Under the pieces are notes generated by a model that was not told where the DNA came from, made no database searches, and saw only the letters and a list, made by a program, of their open reading frames with translations. 30,367 nucleotides of DNA, taken from IMG/VR virus record IMGVR_UViG_3300008107_004856, positions 1 to 30,367 of that record; one strand, given 5' to 3'. This stretch comes from a virus. Position 1 is the stretch's first letter. Every line of letters begins with the position of its first letter. Below are positions 5,791 to 29,484 of this stretch, one piece after another. A program made the position numbers and the translations under genes.

Positions 5791-8700
5791 TTATTCGTAA
5801 AAAATACCAAGTATTTGATTTAGTGGTGCAAATGTACCAGTCAGTTTGTAAGTATTTCCATTGTAAAAAAATACTAATCCCTCGCTTGCAACAATTCTAT
5901 CTACTCCACCTAATGAGTTTAATCTTGATAATTCTTGTTTTAATTTTTGAATTTGAGCAGGACTTCCTGAATCTCTAACTTGACTTGCTACCGATTTTAA
6001 TCTTTCTTTCATTGAACGTATTGCTTTATCAGGATGAACCGTCAATACACTACCAACAAATTCTAAAACATCAGCACCAACTCCTAAAAATATTTGTTCA
6101 AATGGTTTGATATTTTCTTTTTGTTGTTTTATTACATTTACTTTATCATTTTCAATCGCCCATTCTTGTAATTCTTTATTTGATATTGTATTCAAACGAA
6201 ATGATTTATCGCCAAATGCCCATCTTCTAATCAATGATTCTTTTGTAAGTTTATCAATTTTTGTAGGTGCCTTTGATTCAATCCACCAATCCCACCAACT
6301 TTGATGATAATTGGCAACATTATCCGAATCTTTTAAACCAAATTCATTTTGTAATTTATTTAATTTAGAAAGATATTTACCTTTCTTTGAAGATAGGTCA
6401 GCTGATTTAGGTATTTCGGTTATAGGAGGTCCTTGAATTGTATATCTAGATTGAACATCTGCATTTACTTGTTTAATCATTCCAGCTAACATAGTTGCTG
6501 CACCTTGATTTGCTCCTACCGCTACACCTTTTTCATCATAACACGTTGTATTATGAAATACCAATAAAGCTTGTCCGTAAGGAATAACGTTTACCGATGT
6601 TGGCCATATAACTTCTAAATTCATAAAACATTGCCCTTCGTTAAATATTTTTTTTCTTTGAGATTCTGAAAGTGATTGGATTGCTGCTGATAAATCTTTC
6701 ATTGCAAAATTATACGCATCTGTCAATCCACCTCTTCCTGCAAACTTTGATGCAACATCTTCGATACCCATTGCATTTGCTCCTGCATTAGCAAGATTGC
6801 CTTTATTTCTAGCTGCAATTAATCTACCATTTTTCCAACTTATTGCTAATGCTTGTCCATCGGTTTTTTCTCTAACTACCCCTAAATCACCTTCTAAAGC
6901 CTTTGTAATTATATCTTTTAAATCACCAAAGGTAAGATTCATATCATCAAACGGATGTGACATGTGCCCATATGCCCCACCTTCCATTAATAATTCTTCT
7001 TTTATAAAATCAGTTTTAATATATTTTACATCTGGTAAATTATCAATTGTGTATGTTATTGTTCTTTCTTCCGCATCTTCATCTCCAAATATTGCATCTG
7101 CTTTTGGAAAATCAGTTTGAGTATATCCACCATTTTTGTACCAATCTTCACCTTTTTCGGAATTTAATTTTCTTTTCTTACCTTTTGTGATAAATGCACC
7201 ATCCGGTACGTCGGCGGTGTTTGATATAGTAACATTACTAACTTCCGATAAATCAACTTGAATATTTAATTCCTTTTCCATTCTAGTTATATCATCGTAC
7301 CCCATATTTTTTAATTCTCTTGCAACTTCGTTTGGAGTTGGGTTTATATTTACTCTTCCAAAAAGATATGCGTTAATTCTTTTTTTAAATTTAGAATCTC
7401 TATACAACTTCATTATATTAATAAAATGAACATCTTTATTGCCCATCTCATATATATTTTGGCCTTTTTTACCCAATCTAAATGTAGTCGCCACCTTACC
7501 ATTGATAGTTGGCATTCCGTGGTCATCTTTACCGAAATTTTTAACAACAACTTTTTTGTTCTTAAATTTTCCCATTAAAACTTCATCACCCTTATCAACA
7601 TCTATATTAATATCTTCATTATAGATTTTTTTATTGATTCTACCATATTCTCTCATTAGAATTCCTGCTACCGCATGTGCTTGGTTTTCAATTGGAGAAC
7701 CATCTGCACCATCTTTCATTGGATTTTTTACTAATCCCAATTCGTCTTGCTTTCTATGAACCATTTCATGTGCAAGAGTTCTTAAAATATCCGCAGTCAA
7801 TCTTCCTTCGGTTGCAACAAATATTTCTTTTGATACGGGGTCAAATCCACCTAAACTGGTTTTTACTTCTGCAAATTCTCTACCTGCTACTAAACTTATC
7901 TTTGGTTGTTCTTTTAATTTTAATCTTTTAGTTGCAAACTCTACAAAGTTTTGAATTGATTGTTGTTTTGTTTCTGAAAGATTTTCATTTAATCCACTTG
8001 TAAAGTTTTTTAGTTTTGAAACTTCTTTTTGTTTTTTATATGATTCTAATGTTTTTAATAATTGTTGAGGGGTTGGTTCAAATGTTTCCATTTTTTTAAC
8101 AACATCTGCAACCAATTTCATAAACATATCACCATGTGCTTTTGTTTCATCTACTTCTTCCATTAATCCCATTCCTTTAAGTGCCATATGTCCTAATCCA
8201 GCAACACCTGCACTTACTTGTGCTTCAACGTGTCCCTCACCCGCTGCTAATCCAATAGCTTCTAATCCACAATGTTTTCCAAAATCAACTGCTGCGTGTG
8301 CCACAAATCCTCCTACACTTGATACGGAATGCGCTGCACCATGAGTTGCGGCATGTACTACTCCACCAATACCCTTCCCAGCTACTGCTGCTCCGGTTGC
8401 ACCTGCGATTGCGGCTCCAACAACAACCGATGCACCAATAACTGCTACATCTTTAAGAGTTGAAATACATGCTTTTCTTTGTCTTTTAGATTCATGTTCG
8501 CTATATTTGTATTGTCCGTCTTTATCTTTAAACCAGCCAAATTGAGGTTTACCGGTATACATTGTTGATAATGCCAAAGATTTTAAACCTCTACCTGTAT
8601 TTTTTAATTGATGATATTTTTGTTTTGCAACCTCATATACTTTTTCCGCTATATTTTTTGGAAGATTTGAAACAAAATCACCTATTCTTTGAGTCCAACC

Positions 8701-10050
8701 TTTTCTTGTTTCAGAATGTGGATTAGTTGTTTCATGTACATCATGTTGGTCTTCTTCGGAAAAATCTTTAATTATATCTTCACATTTTCTTTTTGCTTCT
8801 TTAGCTATTTCTGCAGCTTTTTCTTTAATTTTATCTATATTACTTTTTTCAGCATCAGATTTTAATTCAGCTCCTCCAATTTTTTGTTCAGGAGGTGGAC
8901 CTTGTTCTTGCCCTTTTTCACCAGGTGCAGCAGATGATTTTTCTTTATCTATTTTTCCTTGTTGTGTTTGGCCGTTTTTAGTTGGTTGACCAGGTGCGGC
9001 CGGTTTAGCGGCTTGAGTTGCTGCTTTTCCAGGTTCCGTTTTTTTCTTTGGTTCGTTTGCAGGTGCATCATCTGGCCCAGCTATTCTTGAAGCCTGTATA
9101 TGTGCTGGATGTTCTTTTGGTAATCTTAATGCGTCCCTTGCTTTAATTTTCTTTTGTTGACCCTTACTATTTGTATAACTAATATCAACATCCAATGCTT
9201 TATTTGAAGCTTCTCCAAAATATTCTCTAGCAAATTCTTCAAACATTTCATTTGTAATATATCTTTCTATTATTTCATTAATAGGGTCATATAATTCATC
9301 TTTTTTATACCAATCCGGTTCATCGGATGGATGTTCAGTCTCATGTCTTGTAGGATGTGGTTCTGGTCTCATTTCTGATGATGGTTTTGTATTATTACTC
9401 TCATCTACCGAACCAGTTGGTGCACCATTTATGTATCCACCGGGTAAGTTTAAACCAACTCCAATTCCACCAGGAAACCCTTCACTCAATTTTGTTGTTA
9501 TCATTTTAAAAATATCTTTGTCAAATTTTGGATATGTTTTTAAAAAAAACTTTTTAGCTTTTTCTTTGTCATTACTACCTAATCCCTTTCTAACATCAGT
9601 TCCACTAATTGGATTTTCTTCTGCAGGAATTGAATATGTATAACCAATTTCATCATAACCATACCCAGATTTACCTTTATATGGTTTAAAATATTTTCCT
9701 TGTAATCTACTTGCATCTTTTTCACCCACTGCTGCAATGTATGCAATAGTTTGACCATCATATTTTTTTAATATTTCAACTGGTCTGTATGGATTACTTA
9801 CTTTTATAAATTTAGTAGAAGGTACACCAAACATTTTTGTTGCAATTTCTTTTTTCTCATTAAAAGAGAATGGAGACTTATCCGAAGATGTATCGTTTGA
9901 GGTTGCAATATAAACATTTGCAGAACCAAATTCACTTACTAAATTTTGATATGCTGCATAATGTCCTTTATGAAAGGGTTGAAAACGTCCTGCATATACT
10001 ACAATTTCTCCTTGTATCTTTGGTTTATCTTTTTCTAATAATAAATTCAT
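5791..10050 (-). CDS. Giant multidomain protein: NMNAT-like domain, HExxH protease-like motif, ligase-type nucleotidyltransferase
   Basis: The protein has 1419 residues. Residues 15-185 are an NMN-adenylyltransferase/cytidylyltransferase-like Rossmann domain: GRFQPFHKGH (21-30, the HxGH motif) and ISGTDVRKG (148-156). Residues about 215-440 are Pro/Lys/Glu/Gln-rich and probably disordered. An Ala/Gly/Val-rich hydrophobic stretch spans about 534-610 and might contact membranes. A metallopeptidase-like HEMVH (761-765) is followed by an ENQAHAVAG segment that could supply the third ligand. The C-terminal 370 residues resemble covalent nucleotidyltransferases (DNA/RNA ligases): EKTDG with K1062 (motif I), MNLEVIWP and LLVFH (III/IIIa-like), SEGLVFFYNG (motif IV, 1390 onward) and YKLTG with K1402 (motif V-like). 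It lies directly upstream of the packaging genes. A virion-borne or injected protein, acting in NAD supply or nucleic-acid repair, is inference. Confidence 0.85.
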   Translation of the reverse strand: MNLLLEKDKPKIQGEIVVYAGRFQPFHKGHYAAYQNLVSEFGSANVYIATSNDTSSDKSPFSFNEKKEIATKMFGVPSTKFIKVSNPYRPVEILKKYDGQTIAYIAAVGEKDASRLQGKYFKPYKGKSGYGYDEIGYTYSIPAEENPISGTDVRKGLGSNDKEKAKKFFLKTYPKFDKDIFKMITTKLSEGFPGGIGVGLNLPGGYINGAPTGSVDESNNTKPSSEMRPEPHPTRHETEHPSDEPDWYKKDELYDPINEIIERYITNEMFEEFAREYFGEASNKALDVDISYTNSKGQQKKIKARDALRLPKEHPAHIQASRIAGPDDAPANEPKKKTEPGKAATQAAKPAAPGQPTKNGQTQQGKIDKEKSSAAPGEKGQEQGPPPEQKIGGAELKSDAEKSNIDKIKEKAAEIAKEAKRKCEDIIKDFSEEDQHDVHETTNPHSETRKGWTQRIGDFVSNLPKNIAEKVYEVAKQKYHQLKNTGRGLKSLALSTMYTGKPQFGWFKDKDGQYKYSEHESKRQRKACISTLKDVAVIGASVVVGAAIAGATGAAVAGKGIGGVVHAATHGAAHSVSSVGGFVAHAAVDFGKHCGLEAIGLAAGEGHVEAQVSAGVAGLGHMALKGMGLMEEVDETKAHGDMFMKLVADVVKKMETFEPTPQQLLKTLESYKKQKEVSKLKNFTSGLNENLSETKQQSIQNFVEFATKRLKLKEQPKISLVAGREFAEVKTSLGGFDPVSKEIFVATEGRLTADILRTLAHEMVHRKQDELGLVKNPMKDGADGSPIENQAHAVAGILMREYGRINKKIYNEDINIDVDKGDEVLMGKFKNKKVVVKNFGKDDHGMPTINGKVATTFRLGKKGQNIYEMGNKDVHFINIMKLYRDSKFKKRINAYLFGRVNINPTPNEVARELKNMGYDDITRMEKELNIQVDLSEVSNVTISNTADVPDGAFITKGKKRKLNSEKGEDWYKNGGYTQTDFPKADAIFGDEDAEERTITYTIDNLPDVKYIKTDFIKEELLMEGGAYGHMSHPFDDMNLTFGDLKDIITKALEGDLGVVREKTDGQALAISWKNGRLIAARNKGNLANAGANAMGIEDVASKFAGRGGLTDAYNFAMKDLSAAIQSLSESQRKKIFNEGQCFMNLEVIWPTSVNVIPYGQALLVFHNTTCYDEKGVAVGANQGAATMLAGMIKQVNADVQSRYTIQGPPITEIPKSADLSSKKGKYLSKLNKLQNEFGLKDSDNVANYHQSWWDWWIESKAPTKIDKLTKESLIRRWAFGDKSFRLNTISNKELQEWAIENDKVNVIKQQKENIKPFEQIFLGVGADVLEFVGSVLTVHPDKAIRSMKERLKSVASQVRDSGSPAQIQKLKQELSRLNSLGGVDRIVASEGLVFFYNGNTYKLTGTFAPLNQILGIFYE

Positions 10051-14427: not shown

Positions 14428-15546
14428 TTAATTAAATAAGTGATGAAAATTGTGATTTACATATTTTAAATTATGTATTTTTTTTACTTCTGTCATAAAA
14501 TCTCTAAATAAAATATTTGTTGGATTGAATACTTGCAATTCTTCTAAATATTCTGCAGGGAATGTTCCCCAATCTACTATTTGTCTATAATTTATAGTTA
14601 TGCCCCATTTAAATTTAGAATCTTTAAATATATCAGTTATTAGTTCATAAAACATAAACATTTCTTTGTAATTATGTTTACTGACTACCATAGAACAAAC
14701 AAACTCTTCTATTATATGGTCCTGTGTTGATAAAAATTTTAAATTTTCTATTAATCTATCCCATTGTCCATTCCATCTAGTTTTCTTTTCGTATGTTTCT
14801 TTTGTAGCAGCATCTATACTAATTTCAATTGTTTTTATGTATGGAGTTGCTTTCATTTTTTTCCACAAAGGTTCATCTAATAAATTTCCGTTTGTGATGA
14901 TTTGCAATTGTTCTAATTTTGGATATTTTGTTATATCAAAATTTATTAAATAATCTCTGTAAATTTTTGAATAAAATGGGTCACCACTTCCAGTAACCAT
15001 TATTCTTTTTAGTCCACTTGCAAAATTATCTTCAATTGATTTTAATAAATGTAGTTTTGCTTTGTGTTCGGGTGATTCTAAATCATCATTTGGTATTAGA
15101 TTAACTCTACAAGAAGGACATCTTAAATTACAACTTCTATCAAATCCAAAAAGTATTTCTTCTGGTGGTGTTTTAAAATTAACTATATCTTCTTCCGTGT
15201 GTATATTATAAACTTCTTTAAAGTCTTCTATTTCTCTAAACAAATATGGTTTTCTACCAGTATTTATTAATTCGTTTAATCTTGGACAGATGGTATGATT
15301 ACAATATTTGTAAGTACCATCCATTACCGATTTACGAATATTTTGAGCAGGTTCCGATGTCCAATTTCTCATAACATCATCACTCTCATTTACAGGAAAC
15401 CAGTTTTCCTTTCCACTTTCATCTACTCTAATAGATTGAGGTGCCCAAGATGGACAGCATATGAATTGAGATGACCATTGTACATCACTATACATAAATG
15501 GCATCTCACAAACATATTTTTTTAATATTTCCTCTTTATTATCCAT
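14428..15546 (-). CDS. Radical SAM enzyme with N-terminal Cys-cluster domain
   Basis: This 372-residue protein has the radical SAM motif CxxxCxxC in SCNLRCPSCR (C139, C143, C146), a GSGDP segment at 186-190 in the position of the SAM-binding GGEP motif, an ITNGN strand near 217 and an EISIDA strand near 242. Upstream it has an extra Cys set: C13, C30/C31 in FICCPSW, and C82/C87 in YCNHTICP, probably an auxiliary iron-sulfur cluster as in twitch/SPASM-type enzymes but placed at the N-terminus. The start overlaps the preceding SDR stop as TAATG, and it is 2 nt from the Pyr-domain subunit gene. Radical SAM enzymes in sugar clusters do dehydrations, epimerisations or carbon-chain changes; the substrate here is unknown. 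Confidence 0.85.
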   Translation of the reverse strand: MDNKEEILKKYVCEMPFMYSDVQWSSQFICCPSWAPQSIRVDESGKENWFPVNESDDVMRNWTSEPAQNIRKSVMDGTYKYCNHTICPRLNELINTGRKPYLFREIEDFKEVYNIHTEEDIVNFKTPPEEILFGFDRSCNLRCPSCRVNLIPNDDLESPEHKAKLHLLKSIEDNFASGLKRIMVTGSGDPFYSKIYRDYLINFDITKYPKLEQLQIITNGNLLDEPLWKKMKATPYIKTIEISIDAATKETYEKKTRWNGQWDRLIENLKFLSTQDHIIEEFVCSMVVSKHNYKEMFMFYELITDIFKDSKFKWGITINYRQIVDWGTFPAEYLEELQVFNPTNILFRDFMTEVKKIHNLKYVNHNFHHLFN

Positions 15547-22693: not shown

Positions 22694-23452
22694 TTAAAAA
22701 TAAATATTATCTTCTATATAAATTTGTGGATAGTTTCCACTAAATGTCATATCCCATATCTTATATCTAGTACATTGATTAAAGTTACAAAAGAATGCAA
22801 AATTATCTTTCAATGGATAATGACCATGAAATTTTCTTAACCCATCAAATAATTCATATGTGTATTCATTACTTTTATAATTTTTAACTATATCATCAAC
22901 TTCCGACATTTCTATTTGTTTATTCAATAAAAATGCAGTATCAAAATCAAAATCACCTATTTGTCTATGTTCTTCTTCGCATATCATAGAACCACATCCA
23001 AACCAATAAAATGCTCCTTCATATTGTTTCTTTTTAGTTCCTTTAAAAGATATACTACCAACTAAAAAATTATTAAAATAACATTTAATCTCATTATTAA
23101 CCGAATTGTCACAAATCATAACATATTCATTTAAGTTGTCAATATCTTCGTTTTCTATTTTATGTGTAACACTTGTATATTCATATTTACCAGATTTGTT
23201 ATCAAGTATCCACCAGCTATATACAGCATGACATTCGTTGTTTGTGTCTTTAAAAACACTAATTCCGGAATGCATTCCATTTCTTGAAAACATATAGTTT
23301 TCCTTTTCAACCTCTAAAAATTCTTGGTTTATTTTTACTTTTAAATACAAAGTAAAATCATTTGTCATATGGCCATCTATTCTTGCAGAAACAGAATACC
23401 TATCTTCTGGCAATATAAAAAATATACTATCTTTATTTATTCTTAAACTCAT
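22694..23452 (-). CDS. Stand-alone LamG/concanavalin-like domain protein
   Basis: This 252-residue protein appears to be a single jelly-roll domain. Evidence is the NDFTLYLKVKIN strand (compare TISVLVK in LamG), a NSVNNEIKCYFNNFLVGSIS pair and a GDFDFDTAFLLNKQIEMSEV segment, which is a form of the LamG end motif (G-x-IDx...LS..E). The last 45 residues (YPLKDNFAFFCNFNQC onward) look like the N-terminal strand of LamG moved to the C-terminus, as in the two neighbouring fusion proteins. There is no catalytic motif. The start overlaps the next gene's stop as ATGA. A glycan-binding role beside the GT7 fusion genes is likely, but the ligand is unknown. Confidence 0.6.
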   Translation of the reverse strand: MSLRINKDSIFFILPEDRYSVSARIDGHMTNDFTLYLKVKINQEFLEVEKENYMFSRNGMHSGISVFKDTNNECHAVYSWWILDNKSGKYEYTSVTHKIENEDIDNLNEYVMICDNSVNNEIKCYFNNFLVGSISFKGTKKKQYEGAFYWFGCGSMICEEEHRQIGDFDFDTAFLLNKQIEMSEVDDIVKNYKSNEYTYELFDGLRKFHGHYPLKDNFAFFCNFNQCTRYKIWDMTFSGNYPQIYIEDNIYF

Positions 23453-26193
23453 ATTTTAATTGTTTTACAAAAATTATAAAATTCTTCTAATTCAGGGAAA
23501 GTTTTGCAAAAATTAGTACCTCTACGTTTGTCGTGTTCAGAAAAATACTTATAAAAACTATATCTATTTTTCATTTGTTGATTTGCATCTTGTGGTGATA
23601 CCATCCAATCATAAATTCTCTTTACCTTTTGTACTTCTACATCACTATATCCAATATGTTTGTTATCAAATGATGGTGACGCATAATATGTTATCAACTT
23701 TGTTTGGTTAATAATATGATTAGAAAAATCGTATGGTAAGATTTGAACCGTTTGGTGTAATGGAAATCTTAAATATGATGTATCTAAAAATACCGCTGAG
23801 TTCCAGTATCTATCAGTTGATGCGTATGTATTTTTTAACTTATACACATTATTAATCAACTTATCATAATTAAATACTGATAATGCATTATAGGTAACCA
23901 TAAATGTAATAATAACTCTTGGACATGCCGTAAGTATTTTATTTACATTATCCCAAAAGCGAGGGAATTCCAAACCCGTTCTAATATATTCTGCCTGCTC
24001 ACCCCATGTATCGCAAGATGTAAATATTACAATTTCTTTTGCTCTACCCTCATCTTCGATTCTCTTTATTTTTTCAATAAATTTATCAATTAAAGTATCA
24101 GGTACTCCTAAATTAGAATTGAATGCAAGTTTTAATTCTCTATTTGGATTTGGATGTTCAATAATGTAATCCAATACTTTCCAAGTATCTTTACTCATTA
24201 ATGGTTCACCACCGGTAATTCTAAAAGTATGTAAATCTTTATATAAATCAGGCCACCACTTCCAAAATGCATCAACATATGGGTTATAATCTCTATGAGG
24301 AATTGGTAATTTATCCTCATTTTTCATCCAATCAATTGCATTAAACCTATCCAATGTTGGATATTCACCATATTGTTGAATTTCTTCCATCCAAGTTGAA
24401 CTATATGCTGGGCCACAATATGAACATTTAAAATTACATGCATTACTGAATGAAACCTCTACATATTTTGGGTTATAATCATCTCTCCAATTTGAATTAA
24501 ATATTTCTTCTTTAAATGGATATGACCAACTTTCTCCTGATTTGAAAATTCTATCACTAAATCTATCGGAATTATCCTCTACATTCCAACAATAATCACA
24601 TTCTTCAGGCCTTCCACCTTGTAACATTTCTTTTCTACGAAGTTTTTTATATCTCGTATTATGAAGTGCCGATGGATTACGTGCAATTTCTGATTGTGAA
24701 ATTTTATGAGTACGTGGATGGTGACATGAGTGATTGTGGCCGCTTTGTAATTGTAAAGTTACTTGTGTCCATTTTGCAAGACACATACCTTTACCCATTT
24801 CATCCAATTCATCCTTAACCCTTAAATATATGGGGTTTTCAAACTTTTCTTTATCTTTATTGATTCCGTCACTTTTATAATCTATATTTCCTTGTTGCAT
24901 TTGTAGAACATATCTTCTTTCATTTGCTGCCGTAGTTTCTCCCTTTGCCCACTTATCTATTCCACCGATTTTAACCAATCCTTCCGTTTGGTGTGGTAAA
25001 CATCTGAATTTTCCATCTCGTCTATGTGGTAAAATTGTATGTGGAATTTCTATTTTTTCTTTTTTTAATTCAATATTTTCCATTTCACCAAACTCCAAAT
25101 TCATTGTAAAAATGTCTAATACTAAATTATCTTCAGGACAATTATTATGTAATTCTTTAATCTCATTCGCATTTAAACACCTATCCCACATTTGAATTTT
25201 AGCAATACCACCTTTAAAAAATTCTTCTTTGGGAGATTTGGAATAACCTACATAAAATGGTTCCATTCCATATTTTTTTAATGGTTCTATAAAACTTAAT
25301 GGAGATTGTGTACCGGTTCCCAATCTTGCATCACTTTCTCTACCATTTAAATAAAAATGTATTTTATTATTTTCAGTATCTACGGCCATAGTAACCCAAC
25401 TCCATTGATTTTCATATCTCTTAATCCATTGATACAAATGTCCTTTCATTCTATCCCAAAGTTGCATTGTATATGCTCTACTATTATTAAATGACAATCC
25501 CCAATCATATCCTGGTTTTCTAAAAATTGGATATTCAACAAACTTTCGTTCTTCATCTCCAATCAACCAAATAGGAACTTTTTCAATTTGCTGGTCAGCT
25601 TTTACTAATACTGAAATTGTATGTGAATTAGAAAGACAATCTCTTTGTTCTCTACTAGGTCTAAATTGAATTTTAGAATTTACACCATTAAAGTATGCCA
25701 CATATAACTCCTCATTATAATCTAATTTTGTTTTATCTGCATAACCTTCCATTACACATCTCCAAAACAAATCGTCATCTTCCATACCCCAATCCCAATA
25801 TCCATTTGAATATCCATTAGTTCTCTCTACTTGTTCTTTTGAAAATACAACTGCTCCACCAAAATACTCTTCATATTTTAGTTGATAGTCTGATTGTGAT
25901 ATTCGAACTGCAATGTGTTGTGGGTTTTCTTCTGGGAATGAATAATCACAACTTTCATCTTCTGGTACCATATCAATATCATGCCAAACAATGTAATCAC
26001 ATCCATCATCAAAAGCGTATTTTGCTGCAATGTTTTTCATTAACCCTCTATTGAATAATTTATCATCGCATTGGTGTGCTAAATAAATTGTATGTTCTAT
26101 TCCCTTTTCGGTTAAAAACTTTGATACATGTGGAACAAATATATTCATATGTTCCTCTCTATTTCTATATGGTACGCATACTCCTAATTTCAT
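23449..26193 (-). CDS. GT7 (beta-1,4-galactosyltransferase-like) with LamG insertion, fused to radical SAM enzyme
   Basis: This 914-residue protein joins three modules. The GT7 part has CVPYRNREEH (6-15), LFNRG (46-50), the metal-binding DID (72-74), YFGGAVVFSKEQ (110-121) and WDWGMEDDD (133-141), closely matching vertebrate B4GALT motifs. A LamG-like domain (about 165-350, ending GGIAKIQMWDRCLNANEI) follows, and then the rest of GT7 (about 385-445, with H401 in LPHQTEG). From about 470 a radical SAM unit begins: a Cys/His-rich N-terminal cluster (SGHNHSCHHP, ECDYC), CxxxCxxC at C586/C590/C593, and ITGGEPLMS. This resembles the twitch-domain radical SAM proteins of phages. It could bind a glycan, extend it and modify it in one polypeptide. 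Membrane segments are absent. The fusion start and end are clean, with no sign of frameshift. Confidence 0.88.
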   Translation of the reverse strand: MKLGVCVPYRNREEHMNIFVPHVSKFLTEKGIEHTIYLAHQCDDKLFNRGLMKNIAAKYAFDDGCDYIVWHDIDMVPEDESCDYSFPEENPQHIAVRISQSDYQLKYEEYFGGAVVFSKEQVERTNGYSNGYWDWGMEDDDLFWRCVMEGYADKTKLDYNEELYVAYFNGVNSKIQFRPSREQRDCLSNSHTISVLVKADQQIEKVPIWLIGDEERKFVEYPIFRKPGYDWGLSFNNSRAYTMQLWDRMKGHLYQWIKRYENQWSWVTMAVDTENNKIHFYLNGRESDARLGTGTQSPLSFIEPLKKYGMEPFYVGYSKSPKEEFFKGGIAKIQMWDRCLNANEIKELHNNCPEDNLVLDIFTMNLEFGEMENIELKKEKIEIPHTILPHRRDGKFRCLPHQTEGLVKIGGIDKWAKGETTAANERRYVLQMQQGNIDYKSDGINKDKEKFENPIYLRVKDELDEMGKGMCLAKWTQVTLQLQSGHNHSCHHPRTHKISQSEIARNPSALHNTRYKKLRRKEMLQGGRPEECDYCWNVEDNSDRFSDRIFKSGESWSYPFKEEIFNSNWRDDYNPKYVEVSFSNACNFKCSYCGPAYSSTWMEEIQQYGEYPTLDRFNAIDWMKNEDKLPIPHRDYNPYVDAFWKWWPDLYKDLHTFRITGGEPLMSKDTWKVLDYIIEHPNPNRELKLAFNSNLGVPDTLIDKFIEKIKRIEDEGRAKEIVIFTSCDTWGEQAEYIRTGLEFPRFWDNVNKILTACPRVIITFMVTYNALSVFNYDKLINNVYKLKNTYASTDRYWNSAVFLDTSYLRFPLHQTVQILPYDFSNHIINQTKLITYYASPSFDNKHIGYSDVEVQKVKRIYDWMVSPQDANQQMKNRYSFYKYFSEHDKRRGTNFCKTFPELEEFYNFCKTIKI

Positions 26194-27602
26194 TATATTG
26201 CTACATTTATTTGAGTTATATTATTATCATATTTATTTATACCATAAACATAGTATTCTAATGTAGAAAGTCCATCATTATTTATTAAAGAAATATGATT
26301 TCTAACTTCGTTTTGAAATCTCAATTGATTCCATCTGGTACATTGATTTTTCCATTTATCGCCTACAAATCCATTTTCTTCATGTGGCAATAATTGAAAC
26401 ATTGATTTTTTTCTATATGGTATTTTAATTTTAGTATATTCCTCCAATTCTGGTGTAACAATCGAACAACCTATTATTTCTCCATTATTATCGTTTCCAG
26501 ATAAATCTTTTAAATTATAATTTTGTACATAATCTGCATCATAATATGTTTTAAGAAATATTCCTGTATTTAGTTTTTTTAGAGATTTATTTGTTTTGGA
26601 TATATCTTCTATTTGACTATCGGATAACAATGTATCGTAATATGCAAAAGAATCAACTAAACCTTTAAAATAATTTGGAATAATTTCTCTATCAGGAGAA
26701 CCAACTCCAATGAAAAAATTAGGTTTATTTCTATATGGATATAATCTTGTACATGGTCTGGTTTCTCCTATATATTCTCCGTCTTGGTATACTTTGAATC
26801 TATTATCGGATGCATCAAATGTTACAACCATATTTGTTTTATAGTTGGTTTTAATATTTGAATTGACATATAATGCATTATTCCTATTGTCAAATGCACA
26901 AAAGTTATAACGTCTAAACGATGTATAAGAAATTGCTAAATCATAACCAGGAACACTAAATACCGTATATTCATCGGAATCTTTTAAATGATTTAACTCA
27001 GGCGGATTTGGATAAAATGAAATAAAAATTGTAAAACTAGAAGTAAAATCAATGATATTTTTTGATTTTACATATGAATTTATTCCATTAAATTCTAATG
27101 CTTTTTTGTTTGAATTTAAATTTTTAATTTTTAATTCATCTAATTTTACAAATTTCTCTTTACATCTTAAAAGTAGGTCATCATCTTCATATCCCCATCC
27201 CCAATATTTGTTAGAATATCCATCTATTTGTTCAAATATGTCTATTGGAAATAAAGTAACTCCACCGAAATATTCATCAAATACGATTGTTTTTTGTTTT
27301 GATGATATTGTAATAAAATCCGTTGCCAAATGTAATGGAATGTCGGAATAAGAATAGTCTACATCTATTGGTAACATATCAACATCATGAAATACAACAT
27401 AGTCACATCCCAATTCTTTTGCATGTTTAAATCCAATATTAAGGAGCATACCTCTATTGAATAGTTTTGCATCATCTTGCTCAACAATTATAATTTCAAA
27501 ATCAATTTTTTGATTTTTTAAATATTCAACAATTTTTTGTTTAAAAATAGCAAGTTGTTCAAAACGATTTCTATAAGGAACTATGATTCCTAATTTATGC
27601 AT
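26193..27602 (-). CDS. GT7 (beta-1,4-galactosyltransferase-like) with LamG-like insertion
   Basis: This 469-residue paralogue of the first two modules of the next gene has GIIVPYRNRFEQ (5-16), LFNRGMLLNIGF (47-58), the metal site HDVDMLP (72-78), YFGGVTLFP (111-119) and YWGWGYEDDD (133-142), matching B4GALT1 motif for motif. A LamG-like domain runs from about 166 to 385: FNGINSYV, an end motif GLVDSFAYYDTLLSDSQIE, then the normally N-terminal LSGNDNNGEIIG. GT7 sequence then resumes (395-469) with H407 and NNDGLSTLEYYV, aligning with the C-terminal SDGLNSLTYQV of B4GALT1. LamG is therefore inserted in the catalytic fold, where B4GALT has its mobile loop. It probably transfers a hexose to a bound glycan or peptide acceptor. 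Confidence 0.88.
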   Translation of the reverse strand: MHKLGIIVPYRNRFEQLAIFKQKIVEYLKNQKIDFEIIIVEQDDAKLFNRGMLLNIGFKHAKELGCDYVVFHDVDMLPIDVDYSYSDIPLHLATDFITISSKQKTIVFDEYFGGVTLFPIDIFEQIDGYSNKYWGWGYEDDDLLLRCKEKFVKLDELKIKNLNSNKKALEFNGINSYVKSKNIIDFTSSFTIFISFYPNPPELNHLKDSDEYTVFSVPGYDLAISYTSFRRYNFCAFDNRNNALYVNSNIKTNYKTNMVVTFDASDNRFKVYQDGEYIGETRPCTRLYPYRNKPNFFIGVGSPDREIIPNYFKGLVDSFAYYDTLLSDSQIEDISKTNKSLKKLNTGIFLKTYYDADYVQNYNLKDLSGNDNNGEIIGCSIVTPELEEYTKIKIPYRKKSMFQLLPHEENGFVGDKWKNQCTRWNQLRFQNEVRNHISLINNDGLSTLEYYVYGINKYDNNITQINVAI

Positions 27603-27869: not shown

Positions 27870-28718
27870 TTATATTGATATTATTTTTTTTAATAATTTA
27901 TTCCAATGTGGATAATCCCACACTCCAATATTTTCAATCATAAATTCTGGATTAGTAATATCAATTTTAAATCTAGTTTTTGCCAGTGCTCTATACATTT
28001 TCCTATATTCTTCTGAATAAGAATAATCTTTCATAACATTTGCAACTTCTCTAATTCTATCTCCACAACTACTATCCCATTTGAAATGATGTACCTCAAC
28101 ACTATATACATCAATGGGTGCAATTAGTGGGTGATTCCAACCTTGCCATTTCCATGTAGTTTGGCCATCTATTTTTGCATAATGTTGTCCGGGTGTTACT
28201 TCAATATAACCTTTCATTATACAAATTTTATTTGGACATGCACCACTTAATGGATATCTGAAAAATCCTGCCAATGGAAATTGTTTAAATATATCCTCTT
28301 CATCATTTATTTCAGGAAAAGTTCCATCTATACCAATTCTATCTATAAAACCACCTCTAACTAATTCCCAACCATTTTCTTCACAATCTTTTATAATTTC
28401 TGATAATTCTTTTGAATAGATATGAAACTCATCATCATCTGATACTATCCACCAATCTTCTGGATACATTAATTTTGTTTCATTATATAATTGTGTTACA
28501 TATTCCCAATTATATTTTTCTCTTACTTCTCTTCTTACTATTTTAGCATTTGAAAATTTAGAAACAATTTCTTTTACTGAATCGTATGTAGAAAAATTTT
28601 CCCATTCATATACTACAACAAAAATTTCATCCACAATTTCAGCATAGTGACTTAACATATGCCATAGAGTGTTTGTTCTACTTCCTGTTACTGTAACTAA
28701 TCTTATTTTTTTATTCAT
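27870..28718 (-). CDS. Glycosyltransferase family 2-like (GT-A)
   Basis: This 282-residue protein opens with KIRLVTVTGSRTN (about 4-16), a first strand with a nucleotide-side loop, then VDEIFVVVYEWEN. It has the DxD-type metal motif VSDDDE at 92-97 after YPEDWWI. Late in the chain is VYSVEVHHFKWDS, the His/Lys segment typical of small GT-A enzymes of the GT2/GT92-like type. The YNETKLMYP region before the DDD is the usual donor-facing helix. The donor is unknown. It lies 7 nt from the methyltransferase gene upstream and ends at the 53-nt promoter gap. Confidence 0.75.
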   Translation of the reverse strand: MNKKIRLVTVTGSRTNTLWHMLSHYAEIVDEIFVVVYEWENFSTYDSVKEIVSKFSNAKIVRREVREKYNWEYVTQLYNETKLMYPEDWWIVSDDDEFHIYSKELSEIIKDCEENGWELVRGGFIDRIGIDGTFPEINDEEDIFKQFPLAGFFRYPLSGACPNKICIMKGYIEVTPGQHYAKIDGQTTWKWQGWNHPLIAPIDVYSVEVHHFKWDSSCGDRIREVANVMKDYSYSEEYRKMYRALAKTRFKIDITNPEFMIENIGVWDYPHWNKLLKKIISI

Positions 28719-28725
28719 TCTTTTT

Positions 28726-29484
28726 TTAAAGCTTTCTTGTTAGTAGTGCTAAACCTGTACTTGAAGAAGATGTACCGAACCTACGAAAATTTTTTAACTT
28801 TACCAAATTCCAATCACTATTTTTTTCTAAATCTTTAATATATTTTGCAGGCCCATCGAAAGTTGCAAAATCTTGCTTAGCATTTTCGGTTACAATAAAT
28901 GTATCATGATATGTTTGGTCTATGTCGTGAATTGTAATAATACCATTTTCAGACATAATTGTTGAGTATAATTCAAAATCTTTTTTTACACCTTCATATG
29001 AATGGTCTCCGTCAATATGTAAATAATCAATTTTAATATCCTGTCTTACAAAATAATCATAGAAAGTTCTTTCGGAAGTTTCTAATATAACTTGTGGTGA
29101 AAAATGTTGTCTTAAAAATGAATTTTCATTTGTCCAATCGGTAAAACCACCAACACTATTTGCTGCGTCAACAATTATAGTAGTTCCAATGTCACCCCAC
29201 TCCAAAGAATTATCACCTTCAAATATTCCCTGTTCCCAAAGGTCTCGTCTAGCTTGTGTCATTAAACGTGGAATAAAACCACCTCCTGACCCAATACAGA
29301 CACAAACTTTGGCACGATTGAACATTATAAGGGAATAAATTAAAAGTCCGTCTCCTAAATGTAAATCAGTTGCACCATGCGACCAACGATATTTTATAGG
29401 TTCCAATATCATATTACCATTTTCATCAATTGTGTGATTATTGGTTAGATATTGTTTAATGTATTCTTTATTAAATAAGTCCAT
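28726..29484 (-). CDS. Class I SAM-dependent methyltransferase
   Basis: This 252-residue protein has Rossmann motif I VCVCIGSGGGF (60-70), a TTIIVDAAN acidic strand (101-109), and LHIDGDHSYEGVKKDFE (155-171) followed by GIITIHDID. This arrangement is that of Methyltransf_24/rhamnosyl O-methyltransferase and cephalosporin-hydroxylase-like families. The HGATDLHLGDGLL segment before motif I is a lid-like region. Sugar O-methylation fits the neighbouring glycan genes, though small-molecule or protein methylation is not excluded. It overlaps the upstream SGNH-like gene by 14 nt. Confidence 0.8.
   Translation of the reverse strand: MDLFNKEYIKQYLTNNHTIDENGNMILEPIKYRWSHGATDLHLGDGLLIYSLIMFNRAKVCVCIGSGGGFIPRLMTQARRDLWEQGIFEGDNSLEWGDIGTTIIVDAANSVGGFTDWTNENSFLRQHFSPQVILETSERTFYDYFVRQDIKIDYLHIDGDHSYEGVKKDFELYSTIMSENGIITIHDIDQTYHDTFIVTENAKQDFATFDGPAKYIKDLEKNSDWNLVKLKNFRRFGTSSSSTGLALLTRKL

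What the first reader, a model, noticed from the sequence alone, without database searches (positions are those of the whole stretch)
26193..27602. LamG-like domain inserted inside a B4GALT-like GT7 fold, apparently circularly permuted
The N-terminal GT7 motifs (YRNR, FNRG, DVD, YFGG, WGWGYEDDD) and the C-terminal GT7 tail (NNDGLSTLEYYV, like SDGLNSLTYQV of B4GALT1) are split by about 200 residues with LamG features. The typical LamG N-terminal strand (LSGNDNNGEIIG) comes after the LamG end motif, which would bring its two ends together and allow insertion. The site corresponds to the mobile loop of B4GALT that closes on donor and acceptor. A glycan-binding module there could gate catalysis. 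I know of no described enzyme with this design.
Basis: partly seen in the sequence, partly recalled or inferred. Interest (0 to 1): 0.75.

Follow-up and report, generated by a model that had tools for sequence, protein, structure and literature searches.

The report
Phage galactosyltransferase with built-in lectin domain
Large viruses of aquatic bacteria carry sugar-transferring enzymes, related to the animal enzymes that attach galactose, in which a complete sugar-binding (lectin-type) domain is spliced into the catalytic core just before the moving lid; the same lectin module recurs across neighbouring enzymes, which suggests one glycan assembly line.

Summary
The finding is real, with two corrections. 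ORF 26193-27602(-), "A", is a GT7 (B4GALT-like) enzyme whose fold is interrupted by about 240 residues of LamG/pentraxin jelly roll (residues ~154-395). AlphaFold gives pLDDT 92.8 and pTM 0.87. The two GT7 halves together match B4GALT1 (Z 26.6, 211 residues, model 1-469), and the insert matches PAPP-A, pentraxins and 4dqa (Z 17-21). Uninserted relatives show the empty site.

Correction 1: the insert lies between the catalytic-base helix and the metal/lid strand (human B4GALT1 ~327-330), about 10 residues before the lid (338-365), not in it.

Correction 2: the strand order is permuted only relative to phage tail-type LamG. It is the normal order of pentraxins, PAPP-A and a stand-alone LamG gene in the same cassette.

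A has a paralogue B with the same insert. Of 80 IMG/VR loci, 80 carry the design and 75 carry both genes. The unit methyltransferase-GTA-A-B-radical SAM-LamG is conserved; in some relatives the radical SAM enzyme also carries LamG modules. No match in GenBank phages. Best reading: lectin-assisted glycosyltransferases of a phage surface-glycan pathway. The architecture is well supported; the function is inferred.

The parts
26193..27602 (-). Protein A, 469 aa: GT7 glycosyltransferase with inserted LamG domain
27144..27602 (-). A residues 1-153: first part of the GT7 fold (YRNR, FNRG, DVD 73-75, YFGG 111-114, WGWGYEDDD 134-142)
   Evidence: Pfam, alignment; phmmer to B4GALT7 3lw6 E 3.9e-29 over 1-154
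26418..27143 (-). A residues 154-395: inserted LamG/pentraxin-type jelly roll
   Evidence: Pfam Laminin_G_3; VIA to PAPP-A, 4dqa, PTX3 and CRP over 160/166-383/394, Z 17-21
26421..26582 (-). A residues 341-394: last strands of the LamG (LKTYYDADY..DLSGNDNNGEI), equivalent to the first strand of phage tail-type LamG
   Evidence: hhalign E 8e-6 with shuffle control
26196..26417 (-). A residues 396-469: rest of the GT7 fold (strand with H407, lid region, helix 420-435, strands 451-458 and 462-468)
   Evidence: AlphaFold pLDDT mostly over 90, lid block 411-420 at 72; VIA to B4GALT1 spans to 469; empty-site alignment
23449..26193 (-). Protein B fused to a radical SAM enzyme, 914 aa: GT7-LamG-GT7 paralogue (34% identical to A) joined in frame to a twitch radical SAM domain
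25033..25725 (-). B residues 157-387: LamG insert at the same site as in A
   Evidence: family LamG HMM E 5.8e-72 (B is among the sequences the HMM was built from at family level); Pfam Laminin_G_3
23476..24792 (-). N_Twi_rSAM radical SAM domain (residues 468-906); a separate gene in most relatives
   Evidence: NCBIfam NF033640 357.6 bits, cut-off 170
22694..23452 (-). Protein C, 252 aa: stand-alone LamG/pentraxin-type domain of the same strand order, no Pfam match over cut-off
   Evidence: AlphaFold pLDDT 92.7, pTM 0.92; VIA Z 18.8 to 4dqa over 1-246
27870..28718 (-). GT-A-like glycosyltransferase (weak Glyco_tranf_2_4, below cut-off), conserved next to A
   Evidence: present in 45 of 46 loci
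28726..29484 (-). Methyltransferase (Methyltransf_24), conserved in the cassette
   Evidence: present in 45 of 46 loci

Best explanation
A is an inverting GT7-type glycosyltransferase (galactose-type donor most likely) into which a LamG/pentraxin-type lectin module was inserted between the catalytic-base helix and the metal/lid strand. Shown by computation: the GT7 fold is complete around the insert; the insert is a complete jelly roll of pentraxin order; the site, the paralogue B and the gene cassette are conserved. Inferred: the lectin holds the acceptor glycan (or a glycosylated protein) beside the active site, so that A and B act one after the other on the same growing chain. Related modules on the radical SAM enzyme in some relatives, and as stand-alone protein C, suggest that all members of the cassette recognise one common acceptor. 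The product is most likely a surface glycan, either the host lipopolysaccharide/O-chain or the phage's own tail-fibre glycan, made in the phage's host-recognition gene cluster.
For: Architecture; empty-site relatives in phages and bacteria; 153 split GT|LamG|GT ORFs in 80 of 80 loci and none without the insert. Catalytic motifs invariant: D75, E139, D140, H407. Purifying selection on all segments. Same-family LamG on B, C and radical SAM proteins. Sequence similarity of the LamG to sialidase carbohydrate-binding modules and pentraxins. Sugar-nucleotide genes nearby (epimerases, dTDP-4-dehydrorhamnose 3,5-epimerase, cytidylyltransferase-like). Pelagimyophage host-recognition clusters are known to hold glycosyltransferases and radical SAM cassettes: PMC7029224.
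Against: No donor, acceptor or binding data. The LamG could serve oligomerisation or membrane/virion targeting rather than glycan binding. Modelled domain placement relative to the active site could not be measured (no coordinates or inter-domain error returned). In an ungapped alignment the strong Mn ligand His343 of B4GalT1 falls on N410 (Glu in B), and H407 falls on Met340, so metal use may differ. LamG also occurs in adhesion roles without any catalytic link.
Confidence: 0.6

Rival explanations
1. The LamG insert is an oligomerisation or scaffolding module: pentraxin-like LamG-LamG contacts hold A, B, the radical SAM enzyme and C together as a complex, without binding glycan.
For: Same-family LamG on several products of one cassette; the fold matches ring-forming pentraxins; the insert sits beside the B4GalT1 residues (E313/R330) that form its dimer salt bridge (PMC6198961; alignment).
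Against: The A, B and C modules share only ~20% identity, so a common interface is not evident. Not tested by complex prediction.
Confidence: 0.2
2. The LamG targets the enzymes to LamG-bearing virion or tail proteins encoded next door, so that the phage glycosylates its own adhesins.
For: Many stand-alone tail-type LamG ORFs lie within a few kb of the cassette in relatives.
Against: Those LamGs are of the other strand order and a separate family; no direct link shown.
Confidence: 0.2
3. A and B are inactive lectins derived from glycosyltransferases, kept for binding only.
For: B in the window has lost its last ~20 residues through fusion to the radical SAM domain.
Against: DVD, ED and H407 are invariant in A and B.
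Confidence: 0.05
4. Chimeric assembly or frame artefact joins an unrelated LamG ORF and a GT7 ORF.
For: Metagenomic origin.
Against: The same architecture occurs in 80 of 80 loci from many independent contigs and in two MAG contigs; purifying selection in all three segments.
Confidence: 0.01

Closest known systems
Beta-1,4-galactosyltransferases B4GALT7 and B4GALT1 (CAZy GT7)
   Same: Catalytic fold and motifs: phmmer E 3.9e-29 to Drosophila B4GALT7; VIA Z 26.6, rmsd 2.2 over 211 residues to B4GALT1; Trp loop WGWG and lid region kept
   Different: Has a ~240-residue LamG insert between the catalytic-base helix and the lid strand; no membrane anchor or stem; H407 falls at the Met340/Met344 position
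Uninserted bacterial and phage GT7 proteins (e.g. L111 Pelagibacteraceae 259 aa, L049 phage 245 aa)
   Same: Same GT7 family and C-terminal RDGxFxxLxHDxNG strand
   Different: No LamG; the site is a short turn
Pentraxins, PAPP-A LamG, BACOVA_03559 (4dqa), neurexin LNS
   Same: Same jelly roll and strand order as the insert (Z 17-21 for pentraxins, PAPP-A and 4dqa; neurexin LNS2 matched by protein C)
   Different: Stand-alone or tandem modules, not inside an enzyme core; 10-18% identity
GalNAc-transferases (GT27) and MGAT4A (GT54), GT-A enzymes with lectin domains (PMC4432651, PMC9296478)
   Same: A lectin in the same chain tunes a GT-A enzyme
   Different: There, from general knowledge, the lectin is a C-terminal appendix of another fold, not an insertion in the catalytic core
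Pelagimyophage/cyanomyophage host-recognition cluster (PMC7029224)
   Same: T4-like phage, glycosyltransferases and radical SAM cassettes beside tail fibres
   Different: The paper reports GT8 as commonest; 'LamG' and 'laminin' do not occur in its text and the GT7-LamG design is not described in the passages read

Membership tests
GT7 (B4GALT-like) glycosyltransferases | Pfam Glyco_transf_7N and 7C over cut-off | tested here: met
   78.2 and 58.9 bits against cut-offs 27 and 23
GT7 (B4GALT-like) glycosyltransferases | Complete GT7 fold including the C-terminal strands | tested here: met
   VIA alignment spans model 1-469, 211 residues; AlphaFold pLDDT 92.8
GT7 (B4GALT-like) glycosyltransferases | DxD, WGWGxED catalytic motifs conserved | tested here: met
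   D73, D75, W134, W136, E139, D140 invariant in 59 A/B sequences
GT7 (B4GALT-like) glycosyltransferases | Metal-binding His of the C-terminal strand (His343 human, His347 bovine) | tested here: inconclusive
   H407 is invariant but aligns with Met340 of B4GalT1/His241 of B4GALT7 in an ungapped alignment
GT7 (B4GALT-like) glycosyltransferases | Transfer of Gal/GalNAc/Xyl-type sugar from UDP-sugar | not testable with these tools
   Needs an enzyme assay
LamG/pentraxin (Laminin_G_3) jelly roll | Pfam Laminin_G_3 over cut-off | tested here: met
   38.5 bits against 27.6
LamG/pentraxin (Laminin_G_3) jelly roll | Jelly-roll fold with pentraxin/LNS strand order | tested here: met
   Sequential alignment of 165-393 to PAPP-A and 165-387 to CRP/SAP
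LamG/pentraxin (Laminin_G_3) jelly roll | Carbohydrate or calcium binding | not testable with these tools
   No coordinates or binding data
Circularly permuted LamG | First strand of the reference order found after the last | tested here: met
   Met against phage tail-type LamG
Circularly permuted LamG | Order differs from all known LamG-like domains | tested here: not met
   Same order as pentraxins, PAPP-A and protein C
N_Twi_rSAM radical SAM (domain fused to B) | NF033640 over cut-off | tested here: met
   357.6 bits against 170

The most novel reading that the evidence does not exclude
A phage-encoded glycan assembly line in which one lectin module works as a shared address tag: it is inserted into the catalytic cores of two GT7 enzymes, fused to the radical SAM enzyme in some phages, and encoded alone, so that all act on one acceptor; in the GT7 enzymes, occupancy of the lectin also controls closure of the adjacent lid.
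Probability: 0.3. Interest if true: 0.8.

Novelty: new variant of a known kind. Interest (0 to 1): 0.6.

Why it matters
GT-A enzymes usually gain acceptor specificity through three known hypervariable regions or through appended lectins (PMC7185993). By my mapping this insert lies in none of the three regions: it sits in the turn between the xED helix and the strand leading to the C-terminal metal/lid segment, next to the moving parts. It is common in uncultured aquatic T4-like phages, and the natural empty-site relatives make a direct with/without comparison possible. If the lectin steers or gates catalysis, it is a natural design for processive or self-priming glycosyltransferases, and it points to how these phages remodel host or virion glycans.

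Tried and rejected
Insertion in the mobile lid: rejected, since the lid region follows the insert intact. Permutation caused by the insertion: rejected, since protein C, pentraxins and PAPP-A have the same order. LamG as a simple appendix after a complete GT7: rejected by the two-part structural match. Assembly artefact: rejected. One or two insertion events: trees of the GT part and of the LamG part leave the A/B relation unresolved; the identical site favours one event. An IQ-TREE run timed out. GenBank phages: no match for A; for B+rSAM only weak Vibrio phage radical SAM matches. Literature searches for LamG plus phage glycosyltransferase found nothing describing it. The insert was sought in bacterial GT7s: only two MAG contigs, which carry the whole viral cassette, have it. 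CBM40 and clostridial lectin-type chains align only with residues 1 to ~190 of C, fitting the other strand order, but this was not examined residue by residue.
Full report
What is there. The ORF at 26193-27602 (minus strand, 469 aa, 'A') is intact. The window is a fragment of a virus genome with T4-type portal and terminase genes. Pfam places Glyco_transf_7N at 2-85, Glyco_transf_7C at 103-158 and Laminin_G_3 at 173-331, all over their cut-offs. The closest solved structures by sequence are B4GALT7 and B4GALT1.

Structure. An AlphaFold2 model built on 59 family members has mean pLDDT 92.8 and pTM 0.87. VIA-align matches B4GALT1 1tvy with Z 26.6, rmsd 2.2 and 211 residues over model residues 1 to 469; B4GALT7 gives Z 26. 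Separately, model residues ~165-393 match PAPP-A, 4dqa, PTX3, CRP and SAP with Z 17-21. The residues before the insert number only ~153, so the match of 211 residues needs the C-terminal segment. A 258-residue giant-virus GT7 in the viral structure library also aligns across the whole model with a large gap.

Where the insert sits. Phage relatives of ~245 aa (L049-L055) and 25 bacterial GT7s (most ~250-280 aa; others have longer, probably over-extended N-termini) lack the insert and run on without a break: EDTDLAKRLESVGLA-IGY-RDGTFIALDHDSNG. An HMM of the GT7 part alone matches those proteins in one piece and matches A and B in two pieces around ~245 residues. Aligning the uninserted form with B4GALT1 and B4GALT7 puts E139 on human E313 and R397 on human R330. 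The insert thus replaces about two residues near 328-329. The Trp loop (309-318) and lid (338-365) of human B4GalT1 (PMC6198961) lie on either side, so the lid is intact. The three hypervariable regions of the GT-A fold are the beta3-alphaC loop, the beta6-beta7 segment and the C-terminal tail beyond beta8 (PMC7185993). By my mapping (inference) the insert is in none of them. H407 is invariant but falls on Met340 (weak Mn ligand) of human B4GalT1 or His241 of Drosophila B4GALT7; N410, or Glu in B, falls on the strong ligand His343. Metal use may differ.

The permutation. I built an HMM from stand-alone LamG ORFs close to the cassette in relatives. In those the SGNGNNGT strand comes first. In A it comes last: residues 341-396 match HMM positions 26-64 (E 8e-6; 100 column shuffles reach at most 14.9, observed 33.6), and residues 155-340 match 72-242. 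Rotating the order raises the score from 44.2 to 62.8; rotated shuffles reach at most 46.0. But the insert aligns in sequence order with CRP 5-206, SAP and PAPP-A, meaning those domains also end with this strand. Protein C (22694-23452, no Pfam match over cut-off) is a stand-alone domain of the same kind. Its family starts with the FNG-type strand and ends with the DxSGNGN strand, its model has pLDDT 92.7 and pTM 0.92, and it matches 4dqa, PAPP-A, pentraxins and neurexin LNS2 from residue 1 to about 247. A pentraxin-order module with adjacent ends could be inserted directly; no new permutation is needed.

How common. A scan with A alone found 53 relatives; a profile scan found 444 candidate relatives in IMG/VR, of which the best 80 were kept. 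All 80 have the design: 153 ORFs are split GT|LamG|GT, two are partial, none lacks the insert, and 75 loci have two copies, A and B. GenBank phages give no match to A. Two MAG contigs named Pelagibacterales and Flavobacteriales carry the whole cassette (L094, L095), probably binned virus DNA (inference).

The cassette. Next to A lies B, 34% identical to A and with the insert at the same site. In the window B is fused in frame to an N_Twi_rSAM radical SAM domain. In most relatives these are separate adjacent genes, and the fusion removes about the last 20 residues of B. The methyltransferase (28726-29484) and a GT-A-like protein (27870-28718) are conserved in 45 of 46 loci. In several relatives the radical SAM protein carries one (e.g. 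L030/L031) or two (L028, L036, L019, L025) N-terminal LamG modules of this family. Further LamG tail-type ORFs lie upstream. Around the cassette are epimerases, a dTDP-4-dehydrorhamnose 3,5-epimerase and a cytidylyltransferase-like protein. This fits the host-recognition cluster of pelagimyophages, where glycosyltransferases and radical SAM cassettes sit among tail fibres; its authors favour modification of the host O-chain (PMC7029224).

Function. Shown by computation: fold, site, catalytic motifs, cassette, purifying selection on all three segments (dN/dS about 0.06-0.25 in close pairs). Inferred: the LamG binds the acceptor. The reasons are that its nearest sequence relatives in the PDB include sialidase carbohydrate-binding modules and pentraxins, that the same kind of module recurs on different enzymes of one pathway, and that GT-A enzymes with lectins use them to tune activity or acceptor choice (PMC4432651, PMC9296478, abstracts). 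Y111 of the YFGG motif corresponds to bovine Tyr289, which favours galactose over GalNAc (own knowledge). Whether lectin binding gates the lid is open.

Verdict. A real and unusual architecture: a known catalytic family and a known lectin fold in a combination and at a site that I could not find described. It is filed as a new variant of GT7, not as a new kind of enzyme.

Noticed in passing
23449-26193: GT7-LamG protein B and the radical SAM enzyme are one ORF here but separate adjacent genes in most relatives; the fusion drops about the last 20 residues (the last strands) of the GT7 fold of B.
   Followed up: partly
22694-23452: ORF without a Pfam match over cut-off is a stand-alone LamG/pentraxin-type domain (confident model), following the radical SAM gene in ~30 relatives.
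   Followed up: yes
L028:8815-11637, L036:8827-11649, L025:8849-11650, L031:8843-10942: Radical SAM proteins with one or two N-terminal LamG modules of the same family, not seen by Pfam (L028 and L031 checked).
   Followed up: partly
L038 record 1.3-15.5 kb, L028 record 245.7-248.5 kb: Clusters of up to ~11 stand-alone tail-type LamG ORFs a few kb from the cassette, a possible adhesin repertoire.
   Followed up: partly
L094, L095: Contigs in MAGs named Pelagibacterales and Flavobacteriales carry the viral cassette; probably virus DNA binned with bacteria, and a hint at hosts.
   Followed up: partly
5791-10050: 1419-aa protein with only an N-terminal cytidylyltransferase-like domain recognised (residues ~9-183); the rest has no family match.
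   Followed up: no
14428-15546: Second radical SAM gene in the window, weakly related to N_Twi_rSAM (46.6 bits, cut-off 170).
   Followed up: no
L111-L113, L116, L118: Pelagibacteraceae single-cell genomes encode an uninserted GT7 relative (259 aa), a possible host counterpart of the phage enzyme.
   Followed up: partly
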